The translations under genes and the position numbers were made by a program. 47,341 nt of DNA from a bacterium (GTDB taxonomy: Bacteria; Patescibacteriota; Minisyncoccia; UBA6257; GWB1-50-10): NCBI GenBank assembly GCA_021812365.1, contig JAKANQ010000004.1:1-47341 (forward strand), written 5' to 3'. Positions within the stretch are counted from its first letter, which is position 1. Every line of letters starts with the position of its first letter. Positions 7,464 through 34,496 of the stretch are shown here, piece after piece. Below the pieces are notes generated by a model, which saw only the letters and a list, made by a program, of their open reading frames with translations, had not been told where the DNA came from and did no database searches.

Positions 7464-7563
7464 TCTCGCATTCCAAATCTTTTCTTGTTCCCAAAATTCT
7501 CACTAATCTCACCGCGAAACTAAAAGAAATAATAAGAAGCACTCAAACCTTCCAAAAAAGCCA

Positions 7564-7610
7564 ACGATTGGTAAATATATATACAATACATACATATATT
7601 TACCAATCGT
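7564..7610. repeat. Perfect inverted repeat, 17-bp arms (left hairpin flanking 7633..8364)
   Basis: acgattggtaaatatat - 13 nt - atatatttaccaatcgt. Confidence 0.9.
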
Positions 7611-7632
7611 GTGATATACTGATAATAAATAT

Positions 7633-8364
7633 ATGGGCGGACCTCTACTTCATGATAAAAATAAAATAAGAAAACGTGCAGAGGAGAAAAGGGAACGAGA
7701 AAGACGTACGCATGCAGAAAGTCGATTAAAAGATAGGAAGTCACGAAGATCTTCTGTGGCGGGGCGCATTCCCGAAGACTTTTTACGTAGGTTATATGTT
7801 GTGGAAAAAAAATCAATGAGGGAGATTGCTGAAGTGTGTTCGTGCTCAATACATAAGGTAGCGTATTGGATTGTTGCATACTCGATTCCGGTGAGAAATC
7901 AAGGCGATGCAGTCTATGAAGCAAAACATAAACACGGTATTTCCCTTTCTTTTGATGAAAAACATATAGAAATTAAAAGTCCTATTTTTTTATATGGAAT
8001 TGGTCTCGGAATGTATTGGGGAGCGGGATTGCGAAGCGGTAACGCTATTCGCATTGGAAGCACTAATCCAGAATTTATAAAAAAATTTATTAATTTTCTT
8101 CACTCTGTCTACGGAGTGCCGCCGAACCTTTTGCATTTTGGTCTTACAATTTCTAAGGATATAAGTGTGGACAATGCTATTTCTTTTTGGGCAAACGCTT
8201 TTTCCGTATCCGCAACGCAATTTCAAAAGCCGATTATTGTGAATTCACACAAAAAAACAGGACAGAAAAAAGAATGGAAGTACGGATTTGTTACGTTATA
8301 TTTTTTTAATTCAAAATTAAAAAAAAGATTAATGAGTGATATTAAGCAATATGAATTATCATAG
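7633..8364 (+). CDS. Basic N-terminus plus HTH plus degenerate LAGLIDADG-like domain protein
   Basis: RLYVVEKKSMREIAEVCSCSIHKVAYWIVAYSIPVR (HTH-like) followed by GIGLGMYWGAGLRSGNAIRIGSTNPEFIKKFINFLHSVYGV (LAGLIDADG-like pattern). Confidence 0.5.
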   Translation: MGGPLLHDKNKIRKRAEEKRERERRTHAESRLKDRKSRRSSVAGRIPEDFLRRLYVVEKKSMREIAEVCSCSIHKVAYWIVAYSIPVRNQGDAVYEAKHKHGISLSFDEKHIEIKSPIFLYGIGLGMYWGAGLRSGNAIRIGSTNPEFIKKFINFLHSVYGVPPNLLHFGLTISKDISVDNAISFWANAFSVSATQFQKPIIVNSHKKTGQKKEWKYGFVTLYFFNSKLKKRLMSDIKQYELS

Positions 8365-8365
8365 T

Positions 8366-8406
8366 ATTGGTAAATATATATACAATTTGGATGTATATTT
8401 ACCAAT
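8366..8406. repeat. Inverted repeat, 13-bp perfect arms (right hairpin flanking 7633..8364)
   Basis: attggtaaatata...tatatttaccaat; shares attggtaaatatatatacaat with the left copy. Confidence 0.9.
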
Positions 8407-8424
8407 GATATGATTGGATTATGT

Positions 8425-8470
8425 GGGGTGGGAGTAGGGTGGGAGTAGGGTGGGAGTAGGGTGGGAGTGG
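8425..8470 (+). repeat. G-rich tandem repeat, about 4 x 11 bp (gggtgggagta)
   Basis: ggggtgggagtagggtgggagtagggtgggagtagggtgggagtgg. Confidence 0.9.
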
Positions 8471-8515
8471 TGTGGTGGGTTTGCGGAGGGGTAGGAGATT
8501 GGGTAAACTTAATCA

Positions 8516-8863
8516 ATGATTTCAATTGAAGATTTTGCAAAGATTGAATTAAGAGTTGCAAAGATACTTTCCGCGGAGCGAGTGGATGGTTCTGAAAAAC
8601 TGATGAAACTTGAGGTGGACGCGGGCGATACGGATGAGGCGGGAACTCCGCTTCGACGACAGGTGCTTGCGGGCATTACAAAGGCCTATGAACCGGAGGC
8701 ACTTCTTAATAAGGCCGTTGTCATCGTGGCAAATTTGGAACCAAGGAAATTGATGGGTATGGAAAGCAATGGAATGCTTTTGGCGGCGACCGATTCCTCG
8801 ACGGGAGTATTGGCGCTTCTTACGCCTGACCTCGATGTGGCCCCCGGAAGTAAAATTCGTTAA
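8516..8863 (+). CDS. tRNA-binding (OB-fold) domain protein, methionyl-tRNA synthetase beta-subunit/MetG C-terminal type
   Basis: ISIEDFAKIELRVAKILSAERVDGSEKLMKLEVDAGD...VVIVANLEPRKLMGMESNGMLLAA. Confidence 0.9.
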   Translation: MISIEDFAKIELRVAKILSAERVDGSEKLMKLEVDAGDTDEAGTPLRRQVLAGITKAYEPEALLNKAVVIVANLEPRKLMGMESNGMLLAATDSSTGVLALLTPDLDVAPGSKIR

Positions 8864-31158: not shown

Positions 31159-31242
31159 GAGATCCTCCTTGTGCGATGTGCTCTTTGCACCATAGCAAAA
31201 GAGAAGGGGGATGTAAATAATTCGTCTTTCTCCCGCACAAAG

Positions 31243-31329
31243 CGGAAGGGGCGAGATTCGAACTCGCGAGAGGATTTCTCCCCTACAGTCTTTCCAGGAC
31301 TGCGCCTTAGACCACTCGGCCACCCTTCC
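31243..31329 (-). tRNA. tRNA-Ser (anticodon GGA), CCA not encoded
   Basis: ggaagggtggccgagtggtctaaggcgcagtcctggaaagactg...gttcgaatctcgccccttccg; anticodon loop ctGGAaa; long variable arm. Confidence 0.95.
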
Positions 31330-31508
31330 GCTTTAAGCGGGATTGCGTTTTGTGACTTCGCTTCGCATCAGACAAAACGGGAACAGCACTTGCGCACGTA
31401 GACCACCATGCGACCCCTCCTTTTATGCCTTGTGATTGTACGATAATACGTGTTTTTTTTCAATTTTCAGATATAAAATTGGGCATTTCATCTTGTCTAG
31501 TTTTGTTT

Positions 31509-31514
31509 TATACT
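31509..31514 (+). promoter_or_regulatory. Putative -10 element (TATACT) upstream of the methylase operon
   Basis: gttttgttttatactaaaag about 30 bp before ATG 31544; -35 weak. Confidence 0.35.
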
Positions 31515-31543
31515 AAAAGAGAATTTTAGTTCTTGTTGAAGCG

Positions 31544-32707
31544 ATGGCAAATAAAAATCTCACAAACGCAAAACGGGCAAAGAACGACGAATTTTATACT
31601 CAGTACAGCGATATTCAAAAAGAGATTGAAGCGTATTTGGAATATAACCCCGACGTATTCCGCAGTAAGGCGGTATATTGCAATTGTGATGATCCATACG
31701 AAAGTAATTTCTTTCGCTATTTTGTGCTCAATTTTAATAAACTTGGATTGAAACAACTTATCACCACAAGCTACAAACCTTCACCTGTAGCAAACACTCA
31801 GTTGGCATTATTTGGTGATGACAAAACTCTTGCAAAATCAAAAGGGCGTCCCAAAGTAACCGCTAACAAATTTATTATCAACGAAGTACGCGACATAGAT
31901 GATGACGGCGAATTTAATTTGAAGGACGTTGCAAAGCAGTTAAAGACGAACAAAAACAACGAATGGTCGCCACTCGAAGGTGATGGTGATTTTCGTAGTA
32001 ATGAATGTGTAAATCTACTCAAGCAATCTGATGTTGTGGTAACAAATCCACCATTCAGTTTGTTCCGCGAATATGTTAAACAACTTTTTGATTACAATAA
32101 AAAGTTTGTAATTATTGGCAATATGAACGCGATTACTTATAAGGAAATCTTCTCTTTAATTAAAGAGAATAAAGTATGGCTTGGAGCTGGCAAAAACGAT
32201 GGAAGAAATGTTTGGTATCAGGTTCCAGATAGTTATGAAAATTTTCACAAAAAAGAGGATGGTAAGAAATACGCATTTGTTGCTGGAACGATTTGGTTTA
32301 CCAATCTTGATCATGGGCGCCGCCACCAACCGTTGCCGTTAATGACTAAAGCAGAGGTAATTAAATTTGGCACGAAAAAACCATTTGAAAAATATAACAA
32401 CTATAATGCAATTGAGGTGCCTTTAGTTAAATATATTCCAAACGACTATGCGGGTGTAATGGGTGTGCCAATTAGCTTCCTTAGTAAGTACTCTCCAGAA
32501 CAGTTTGAAATTGTAGGAATGTGTGAAAATGAAGACTTATATAAAATGAAAACAAAAGTATATACAACCGCAGAATGCAAACAAGCATATTTAAATAAGT
32601 TTGGTAAAAAGGGAACTTACGATTTGAATGCAAGTGGAGTAGTTATTAAGAGTGGTATATTAGAGAAAGTCTATCAAAGAATTCTTATAAAACATAAGAA
32701 AAAATAA
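31544..32707 (+). CDS. EcoRI-family adenine-specific DNA methyltransferase
   Basis: NAKRAKNDEFYTQYSDIQKEIEAYLEYNPDVFRSKAVYCNCDDPYESNFFRYFVLNF; catalytic-type motif VVVTNPPFSLFREYV. Confidence 0.9.
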   Translation: MANKNLTNAKRAKNDEFYTQYSDIQKEIEAYLEYNPDVFRSKAVYCNCDDPYESNFFRYFVLNFNKLGLKQLITTSYKPSPVANTQLALFGDDKTLAKSKGRPKVTANKFIINEVRDIDDDGEFNLKDVAKQLKTNKNNEWSPLEGDGDFRSNECVNLLKQSDVVVTNPPFSLFREYVKQLFDYNKKFVIIGNMNAITYKEIFSLIKENKVWLGAGKNDGRNVWYQVPDSYENFHKKEDGKKYAFVAGTIWFTNLDHGRRHQPLPLMTKAEVIKFGTKKPFEKYNNYNAIEVPLVKYIPNDYAGVMGVPISFLSKYSPEQFEIVGMCENEDLYKMKTKVYTTAECKQAYLNKFGKKGTYDLNASGVVIKSGILEKVYQRILIKHKKK

Positions 32708-32708
32708 T

Positions 32709-33311
32709 ATGAAAGGAATTATTTACGTAATGACAACAGCCGTATCTGGTTTGGTAAAGATAGGCAAGACCGGTATAAACAATTATCAGGAGAGAATGCG
32801 AAACCTTGAGGCAAATGGTTATTATAATGTTGCCGGCCTGAAAAGATTTTTTGCTATTGAACTTGAGGATTATGATGATAAGGAAAATCTACTGAAAGAT
32901 ATTTTTAATAAACATCAGGTTGGAGAAAGTGAACTATTTGCGCTGGATCAAGAATTGTTGCGACAGCTCCTACTCTCGTTTAAGGGGAGGGTTGTTTATC
33001 CTGAAAATATTGATCAAGAGAAAGAGTTTGACATAGTTTCAAACATTAGAAGAGAGAGTAGGCTATTTAGTTTTTATAAGAAGGGGCTCAAAAATGGAGA
33101 CATAATCGTTTTCAAGGACGATGAGGATATAACGGCCAAGGTTGCTGGTGAGCGCGAGGTAGAGTATGAGGGTCAGATTTGGAAATTATCGCCACTTACA
33201 TATAAGCTTTACGAACAGCGAGGTGAACTGAATGAGAGTGGGGCTTATGCGGGTGCGGACTATTTTAAATACAATGGTAAAAGGTTGAGAGATTTGCCCG
33301 ATGTGATTTAA
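32709..33311 (+). CDS. GIY-YIG (T5orf172-like) protein with C-terminal RAMA/DUF4357-like region
   Basis: GIIYVMTTAVSGLVKIGKTGINNYQERMRNLEANGYY; C-terminal GDIIVFKDDEDITAKVAGEREVEYEGQIWKLSPLTYKLYEQRG...GADYFKYNGKRLRDLP. Confidence 0.75.
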   Translation: MKGIIYVMTTAVSGLVKIGKTGINNYQERMRNLEANGYYNVAGLKRFFAIELEDYDDKENLLKDIFNKHQVGESELFALDQELLRQLLLSFKGRVVYPENIDQEKEFDIVSNIRRESRLFSFYKKGLKNGDIIVFKDDEDITAKVAGEREVEYEGQIWKLSPLTYKLYEQRGELNESGAYAGADYFKYNGKRLRDLPDVI

Positions 33312-33320
33312 AAAAATAAT

Positions 33321-34496
33321 ATGGAAATGAAAACATTTTTAAAAACCAACATCACCGTCAAAGATATTTGTGAAGGATTTGTCTATAACGAACTTGAAGG
33401 CAAGGGTTTGTTTGGTTTGTCTGGTAAGCTCACTATTCAGCCCGAGTATCAACGCAACTATATCTATGCATCCGATGGCGGAAAAAGAGAGGCTGCGGTT
33501 ATTGAGTCCCTGCTTAAGGGGTATCCCATTGGGTTGATCTATTTTAATAAGGTTTCTGAAAACAATTTGGAAGTTTTGGACGGACAGCAACGCATCACTA
33601 GCGTGGGACGTTTTGTGACTGATAAGTTTGCTATCAAAGATGAAAATGGTATGGAACAATACTTTGGTGGTATGGCAAAAGATAAGAAAGCAAAGATCTG
33701 GGAAACAAAGCTGCTTATTTATGAATGTGAAGGTACGGAAAGCCAGATAAAAGAGTGGTTTAAGACTATAAATATTGCCGGCGTTCCGCTCAATAATCAG
33801 GAACTACTTAATGCGGTGTATTCTGGTCCGTTTGTAACGCTTGGCAAAGAAGAGTTTAGTAATAGCCAAAACGCCAACATTCAAAAATGGAGTGCGTATG
33901 TGGCGGGTAGTGCTAATAGACAAGATTTTTTGGAACGTGCGCTTGATTGGGTAAGTAGGGGAAATATAGGAGACTACATGAGTGGTCATCGGTTTGATAA
34001 AAATATCACTGAGCTAAAAAAATATTTTAATGGTGTTATTGACTGGGTATCCAGTGTATTTACTGATGTGGAAAGCGAAATGCGTGGATTAGAGTGGGGA
34101 CGGCTGTATGAGACATATCATAAAAAATCATACAATCTGAAAAAAGTTTCGGAAGAAGTACAAAAACTGTATGGAGATCCATATGTCAAAAACCGCAAAG
34201 GCATTTTTGAATTCATATTAGGAGGCTCTACCGATACTAAATTACTTGATGTTAGGGTTTTTGATGATGCAACTAAAAAATCAGTATATAAGAAGCAAAC
34301 AACTAAAGCTGAAAAGAAAAAAATATCAAATTGTTCGCTTTGTGCTCTTGGACATGATGCCAACAAGAAAAAGATTTGGAAGTTAGATGAAATGGAAGCC
34401 GACCACGTGGCGGCATGGAGTAAGGGTGGTAAAACAACAATCAAAAATTGTGAGATGTTGTGTAAAACCCACAACCGAGCAAAAGGAAATAGATAA
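33321..34496 (+). CDS. DUF262 (GmrS/ParB-like) domain fused to C-terminal HNH nuclease
   Basis: [116 protein letters not shown]. Confidence 0.9.

What the first reader, a model, noticed from the sequence alone, without database searches (positions are those of the whole stretch)
7564..8406. Single gene bracketed by two near-identical palindromes: candidate minimal mobile or homing element
The HTH/LAGLIDADG-like ORF (7633..8364) lies between two hairpins sharing attggtaaatatatatacaat and atatttaccaat. The left copy has perfect 17-bp arms and the right copy perfect 13-bp arms. The segment is AT-rich and sits between unrelated genes. Established knowledge: LAGLIDADG proteins often recognise pseudo-palindromes, and some transposons have subterminal hairpins. 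Inference: an ~840-bp mobile unit, or a nuclease/regulator acting on its own flanking sites.
Basis: partly seen in the sequence, partly recalled or inferred. Interest (0 to 1): 0.68.

Follow-up and report, generated by a model that had tools for sequence, protein, structure and literature searches.

The report
Stranded homing gene between twin palindromes
A bacterial gene flanked by two matching DNA palindromes turns out to be a stray, probably disarmed cousin of a widespread family of 'homing' genes that normally sit directly in front of one tRNA gene, often beside a self-splicing intron, and the palindromes look like switch sites derived from copies of that tRNA target.

Summary
An AT-rich 732-bp gene is bracketed by two palindromes (17-bp and 13-bp perfect arms) that occur nowhere else in the genome. 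A same-genus genome has the same neighbours with about 1,015 bp, including gene and palindromes, missing. The gene belongs to a Patescibacteria family (HTH plus LAGLIDADG-like domain, all profile hits sub-threshold). Of 71 relatives, 69 lie just upstream of a tRNA-Thr gene, nearly always GGU. In 26 the tRNA's own U8-A9-G10 is the stop codon. About half of these tRNAs carry a group I intron after U36 that Rfam misses. Closest relatives have a promoter palindrome that doubles the tRNA target, like the I-TevI operator. Best reading of the relatives: free-standing homing genes cooperating with an intron and autoregulated by target mimicry. The window copy is the exception: no tRNA beside it, palindromes diverged to TTGGTAAATAT, the acidic residue conserved in 62 of 63 proteins is alanine, and its branch is the longest. 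It is probably a catalytically dead palindrome-binding derivative, decaying or becoming a regulator. The '840-bp mobile unit' is not shown: the palindromes are not the insert's ends. The nuclease fold is only weakly supported.

The parts
7464..8478 (.). Segment (about 1,015 bp) present here and absent from the syntenic site of the same-genus genome G005; larger than the palindrome-to-palindrome unit
   Evidence: Empty site in L049 (G005): same flanking genes, lamin-tail stop followed directly by GTTTGCGGAGGGG
7564..7610 (.). Left palindrome, 17-bp perfect arms; proposed operator of the gene
   Evidence: position over the promoter matches relatives L127, L128, L130
7612..7620 (+). Extended -10-like element TGATATACT next to the left palindrome (predicted promoter of the ORF; near-leaderless transcript)
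   Evidence: extended -10 within 60 nt upstream in 18 of 69 relatives, 3.7% of shuffles
7633..8364 (+). ORF, 243 aa: basic N-terminal helix, HTH, LAGLIDADG-like C-terminal domain; relative of tRNA-Thr-linked homing genes
   Evidence: AlphaFold2 pLDDT 86 whole, 91 C-terminal domain
7774..7878 (+). Helix-turn-helix region (residues 48-82; motif S.HKV.YW conserved)
   Evidence: invariant columns; HTH_23 and similar Pfam hits in up to 29 of 63 members, best E 3.9e-6; predicted helices
7990..8028 (+). LAGLIDADG-like motif LYGIGLGMYWGAG; codon 8023-8025 (GCG, Ala131) stands where 62 of 63 aligned proteins have Glu
   Evidence: register supported by sub-threshold LAGLIDADG_3 alignments of relatives
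8366..8406 (.). Right palindrome, 13-bp perfect arms, starting 1 nt after the stop codon, where relatives have the tRNA-Thr gene
   Evidence: relatives:
8406..8414 (+). Extended -10-like element TGATATGAT next to the right palindrome, pointing towards the gene at 8516

Best explanation
The gene descends from a Patescibacteria family of free-standing homing genes that sit immediately upstream of tRNA-Thr(GGU). There, by inference, the protein cuts intron-less tRNA genes around D-arm and anticodon arm, so that repair copies the gene and, where present, the group I intron after U36 (collaborative or intronless homing). The palindrome over the gene's own promoter is two inverted copies of the recognised tRNA half-site, so the protein shuts off its own gene, as I-TevI does. 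The window copy has left the tRNA, lost the acidic residue of its LAGLIDADG-like motif, diverged fast, and is flanked by two palindromes with a changed half-site (ATTGGTAAATAT). It most likely still binds these palindromes without cutting: the left one as its own operator, the right one as a duplicated operator that may influence the downstream gene. Shown: sequence, family, tRNA and intron context, operator-target resemblance in relatives, empty site, loss of the acid. Inferred: binding, repression, absence of cleavage, mode of arrival.
For: 69 of 71 relatives lie directly upstream of a tRNA-Thr gene on the same strand, 26 using U8A9G10 of the tRNA as stop codon. Group I intron with invariant U.G at the splice site and covarying P2, P5, P6, P8 and P9. 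Target ACTCCATGGT in 19 of 37 intron-bearing against 0 of 32 intron-less linked tRNAs. Operator halves match the target (20 of 22 aligned bases in G024 and G021; p about 5e-4 in 11 of 12 relatives' palindromes). D-arm 9-mer TGGTAGAGC upstream of 13 of 68 relatives at 8/9 or better, 0.8 expected. Palindrome and gene co-occur in family f1 (p=0.002). E131A in the window only, 62 of 63 have Glu; longest branch, 2.66 against a median 0.6. All four arms of the window share ATTGGTAAATAT. Empty site in G005.
Against: The window half-site shares only TTGGTA with the tRNA target (p 0.16 left, 0.011 right). The LAGLIDADG fold is not confirmed: PDB fold search and profile comparison with I-CreI (sequence recalled from memory) negative. 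Solo palindromes occur in G022 and G041, which lack the gene. The own tRNA-Thr(GGU) is not in the assembly. Palindrome arms may stay alike by hairpin-templated repair rather than selection.
Confidence: 0.5

Rival explanations
1. A decaying homing gene: it landed here, lost activity and selection, and the palindromes are relics (former operator plus a copy made during insertion).
For: Loss of Glu131, of the DPF motif 103-105, of Asn143 and Lys214; very long branch; no sibling copy in the genus.
Against: The ORF is open over its whole length and keeps HTH and core; AlphaFold2 is confident; all four palindrome arms still share 12 nt and one pair is perfect over 17 bp.
Confidence: 0.27
2. An active minimal mobile unit: the protein cuts a palindrome and the pal-gene-pal cassette is copied into solo palindromes.
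For: Empty site in G005; solo palindromes in five relatives; palindromes as direct repeats could arise by integration of a circle at a solo site.
Against: E131A; single copy, no further palindromes in own genome or genus; the insert extends past both palindromes and the empty site has none; close relatives have palindrome plus tRNA, not two palindromes.
Confidence: 0.12
3. The palindromes act as RNA: terminators or attenuator hairpins around the gene, unrelated to its protein.
For: The left palindrome followed by a T run scores as a terminator on the minus strand.
Against: Stem has 3-4 G-C pairs; the genes on both sides lie on the plus strand, so a minus-strand terminator serves nothing evident; relatives' palindromes copy a DNA target and stand upstream of a -10 element.
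Confidence: 0.05
4. An IS200/IS605-like or MITE-like transposon with subterminal hairpins.
For: Two imperfect palindromes around one gene; solo palindromes elsewhere.
Against: No Y1/HUH transposase match; the protein belongs to a tRNA-linked family; solo copies at most three per genome.
Confidence: 0.02

Closest known systems
Collaborative homing (free-standing HEG plus ORF-less group I intron at the same target; reviewed in PMC3984707)
   Same: In relatives the gene lies outside the intron, next to the gene that hosts it; the intron is ORF-less; intron state changes repeatedly.
   Different: Known cases are in phages and protein genes; here a bacterial tRNA-Thr gene, with the ORF ending inside the tRNA. 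The window copy has neither tRNA nor intron beside it.
I-TevI autorepression (operator resembles homing site; PMC2988022)
   Same: In relatives a copy of the target overlaps the promoter of the gene.
   Different: Here the target half-site is doubled into a palindrome; the protein is HTH plus LAGLIDADG-like, not GIY-YIG. Repression not tested.
LAGLIDADG homing endonucleases of CPR rRNA introns (I-ShaI; PMC11270868)
   Same: Single-domain, presumably homodimeric LAGLIDADG proteins tied to group I introns in the same bacteria.
   Different: Those lie within introns of rRNA genes; these lie outside the intron, upstream of a tRNA gene, with an N-terminal HTH. Sequence relation not established.
WhiA (HTH plus homing-endonuclease-like domain, transcription factor; PMC3781837, PMC11701221)
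   Same: Precedent for a homing-endonuclease-related domain joined to an HTH acting as regulator.
   Different: WhiA is widely conserved; the window copy is an isolated case with no WhiA profile match, and its relatives keep the acidic residue.
Group I introns in bacterial tRNA genes (tRNA-Leu, -fMet and others; PMC3984707); noted in CPR tRNAs in general (PMC8172020)
   Same: Group I fold in a tRNA anticodon loop, splice-site U.G pair.
   Different: In tRNA-Thr(GGU) after U36; not matched by Rfam RF00028.

Membership tests
LAGLIDADG homing endonuclease | LAGLIDADG fold or profile match | tested here: inconclusive
   LAGLIDADG_3 below cut-off in 12 of 63 members, best E 0.0038; several homing endonucleases among weak BFVD matches; no significant PDB match; no match to I-CreI profile comparison
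LAGLIDADG homing endonuclease | Acidic catalytic residue at the end of the motif helix | tested here: not met
   Window has Ala131; 62 of 63 aligned proteins have Glu
LAGLIDADG homing endonuclease | Site-specific DNA cleavage | not testable with these tools
   bench assay needed
Free-standing HEG in collaborative homing | Gene linked to an intron or intron site outside the ORF | tested here: not met
   Met in relatives (69 of 71 next to tRNA-Thr, about half with intron); not met for the window copy (nearest tRNA is tRNA-Ser at 31242)
Free-standing HEG in collaborative homing | Target kept in intron-bearing, changed in intron-less alleles | tested here: met
   ACTCCATGGT 19/37 against 0/32, p=8e-7, relatives only, not corrected for relatedness
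Group I intron (in relatives) | P1 with U.G at 5' splice site, P4-P6, P7, P8, P9, terminal G | tested here: met
   Consensus fold of 29 sequences; alignment. P3 (pseudoknot) only read by eye
Group I intron (in relatives) | Match to Rfam RF00028 | tested here: not met
   No hit at these introns; model sensitivity is limited
I-TevI-type target-mimic operator | Sequence like the homing site upstream of the gene | tested here: inconclusive
   Met in closest relatives and enriched across 68 loci; window shares only TTGGTA
I-TevI-type target-mimic operator | Site overlaps or abuts the promoter | tested here: met
   Extended -10 a few bp beyond the palindrome in window and relatives
I-TevI-type target-mimic operator | Repression by the protein | not testable with these tools
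   bench assay needed
IS200/IS605 transposon | Y1 (HUH) transposase | tested here: not met
   No such Pfam match
WhiA regulator | WhiA family profile match | tested here: not met
   None in Pfam or NCBIfam for the window protein

The most novel reading that the evidence does not exclude
The window protein is a homing endonuclease being turned into a transcription factor: its doubled tRNA-target operator has become a free regulatory palindrome that also controls the tRNA_bind-domain gene downstream, and the solo palindromes of relatives (for example upstream of a zinc-ribbon gene in both G024 and G033) are the beginnings of a regulon.
Probability: 0.2. Interest if true: 0.78.

Novelty: new variant of a known kind. 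Interest (0 to 1): 0.6.

Why it matters
If right, a family of Patescibacteria homing genes that I could not find described uses the tRNA-Thr gene as target, shelter and even stop codon, works with an intron that the standard model misses, and regulates itself through a doubled copy of its target. The window copy would be a natural test of how such a selfish gene, once disarmed and cut off from its tRNA, dies or becomes a regulator. It may also explain why tRNA-Thr(GGU) can seem missing in CPR genomes.

Tried and rejected
Multicopy mobile element: DNA and protein searches of the own genome gave one gene and two palindromes only. Viral origin: no close relative in IMG/VR; the window half-palindrome has two hits in viral contigs that were not followed up, the TTGGTAGAGC palindrome none. 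Transposase: none. Intron elsewhere in the own genome: no RF00028 hit and no core 15-mer, but the tRNA-Thr(GGU) region seems unassembled (contigs end near tRNA-Trp and at tRNA-Tyr). Closer relatives of the window protein: none in 244 order or 384 class genomes, nor in the GTDB pattern scan; the first genome-contig scan with the single protein found nothing. Fold searches against PDB gave no significant hit. NCBIfam, PHROGs and PDB sequence searches gave no informative match.

Full report
1. Observation. The left palindrome has 17-bp and the right 13-bp perfect arms; 300 dinucleotide shuffles of the locus never gave more than 11. They are also direct repeats of each other (49 nt, 82%). The own genome (626 kb, 25 contigs, 98% complete) has these two copies and no others, and one copy of the gene.

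2. Empty site. In the same-genus genome G005 (L049) the flanking genes are in the same order, and the lamin-tail gene is followed at once by GTTTGCGGAGGGG and the tRNA_bind gene. About 1,015 bp of the window (7464-8478) have no counterpart. In G003 (L050) a PaaX-like gene fills the same gap. The three other genomes of the genus searched lack the ORF. So the locus varies, but the extra DNA runs 100 bp left and about 70 bp right of the palindromes. The palindromes are not its ends, and gain versus loss is not resolved.

3. The family. Six full-length homologues, the window included, were aligned and used to search. 73 loci came back from one-genome-per-species GTDB, by their titles nearly all Patescibacteria where named. 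Re-reading 71 of them with ARAGORN allowing introns gave the main result: 69 have a tRNA-Thr gene on the same strand within 350 bp downstream of the ORF. Of the other two, L193 runs off its contig and L164 has the tRNA with intron, missed by ARAGORN. ARAGORN labels some intron-bearing tRNAs Arg, His or Ala, but the aligned sequences place GGU at 34-36; L151 is the one case where only tRNA-Thr(CGU) was found. In 26 loci the ORF's stop codon is nucleotides 8-10 of the tRNA (U8A9G10).

4. The intron. 37 of the tRNAs hold an intron, 158-223 nt by ARAGORN, after U36. The consensus fold of 29 shows the cloverleaf, P1 with an invariant U.G at the splice site, and P2 and P4 to P9; 40 of all 66 predicted pairs covary in at least one sequence, while P4 and P7 are nearly invariant. 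This is a group I intron, yet Rfam RF00028 does not report it. The ORF lies outside it. On the protein tree the intron state changes about 12 times, at least 6 on well-supported branches.

5. Target logic. ACTCCATGGT, just before the insertion site, is in 19 of 37 intron-bearing tRNAs and 0 of 32 intron-less ones next to the gene; GGTAGAGC is in 36 of 37 against 15 of 32. This fits an endonuclease whose target is protected by the intron or escaped by mutation, and co-conversion of flanking exons. Relatedness was not corrected for.

6. Operator logic. The closest relatives carry a 38-39-bp palindrome TTGGTAGAG...CTCTACCAA just upstream of the start, 5-6 bp before an extended -10. Its half is the tRNA target itself: 20 of 22 aligned bases in G024 and G021, across D-arm, anticodon stem and insertion site. 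In those two genomes the operator matches the intron-type target better than their own diverged tRNA. Across 68 relatives the D-arm 9-mer is found upstream at 8/9 or better in 13 (0.8 expected); without the loci that suggested the motif it is still 10; control 9-mers are at or near expectation. The palindrome is almost confined to family f1 (13 sites in 6 genomes; two hits, probably chance, in the other 202 genomes of the order) and is linked there to the gene (p=0.002), with eight solo copies. The I-TevI operator is the precedent (PMC2988022).

7. The window copy. It has no tRNA beside it; a second palindrome stands where the tRNA would be. Of 63 aligned proteins it alone has Ala instead of Glu at the end of the motif GLYWGEG, and it has lost other near-invariant residues. 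Its branch is 2.66 against a median of 0.6. AlphaFold2 still gives confident domains. Its palindromes keep only TTGGTA of the tRNA site, but all four arms share ATTGGTAAATAT, as expected if a changed DNA-binding specificity were followed by its sites, or if hairpin-templated repair kept the arms alike.

8. Mechanism. Relatives: cutting of tRNA-Thr(GGU) genes, repair copying gene and intron, self-repression through the doubled target; all three activities are inferred from sequence. Window: binding without cutting, at its own promoter and at a second copy facing the tRNA_bind gene; inferred. Decay is the main rival.

9. Limits. The LAGLIDADG assignment is sub-threshold. The state of the own tRNA-Thr(GGU) is unknown because it seems to lie in an assembly gap. 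No closer relative of the window protein was found to test selection. The paper library lacks most subscription journals; within it no description of this tRNA-linked family was found. One paper notes group I introns in CPR tRNAs in general (PMC8172020).

Noticed in passing
L127-L199: Family-wide layout: LAGLIDADG-like gene immediately upstream of tRNA-Thr(GGU), in 26 loci ending on the tRNA's U8A9G10, so that RNase P processing would remove the stop codon from the gene's mRNA.
   Followed up: yes
L127:1093-1360 and 35 similar loci (list): A highly conserved group I intron in tRNA-Thr(GGU) after U36 that Rfam RF00028 does not detect; ARAGORN often misnames the tRNA.
   Followed up: yes
L036, L037, L038, L039, L040, L043, L045, L047: Solo TTGGTAGAG-type palindromes without the gene; in G024 and G033 upstream of the same zinc-ribbon gene, in G021 and G022 beside the same DNA glycosylase gene, in G041 three copies without any close homologue of the gene.
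   Followed up: partly
L007:2220-2440 and L010 (reverse strand): Between gene and intact tRNA-Thr lies a broken 5' tRNA copy (GCCAATGTAGC ... GAGCAACTC) split by a hairpin-rich insert, as if the gene had brought its own tRNA 5' half.
   Followed up: no
window 8423-8477: G-rich 11-bp tandem repeat (GGGTGGGAGTA) just right of the second palindrome, absent from the empty site.
   Followed up: no
L050:815-1375: In G003 the same intergenic position carries a PaaX-like gene instead: a variable insertion spot.
   Followed up: partly
window 31242-34496: Beside tRNA-Ser: EcoRI-type adenine methylase, T5orf172 protein and GmrSD_N/HNH protein, a likely restriction-modification or defence island.
   Followed up: partly
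L012-L034: More distant LYWGEG-type proteins are common in the family of genomes and several lie beside RF00028 introns (e.g. G007 C14, G011 C18, G016 C43, G029 C2): probably a wider intron-linked superfamily.
   Followed up: no
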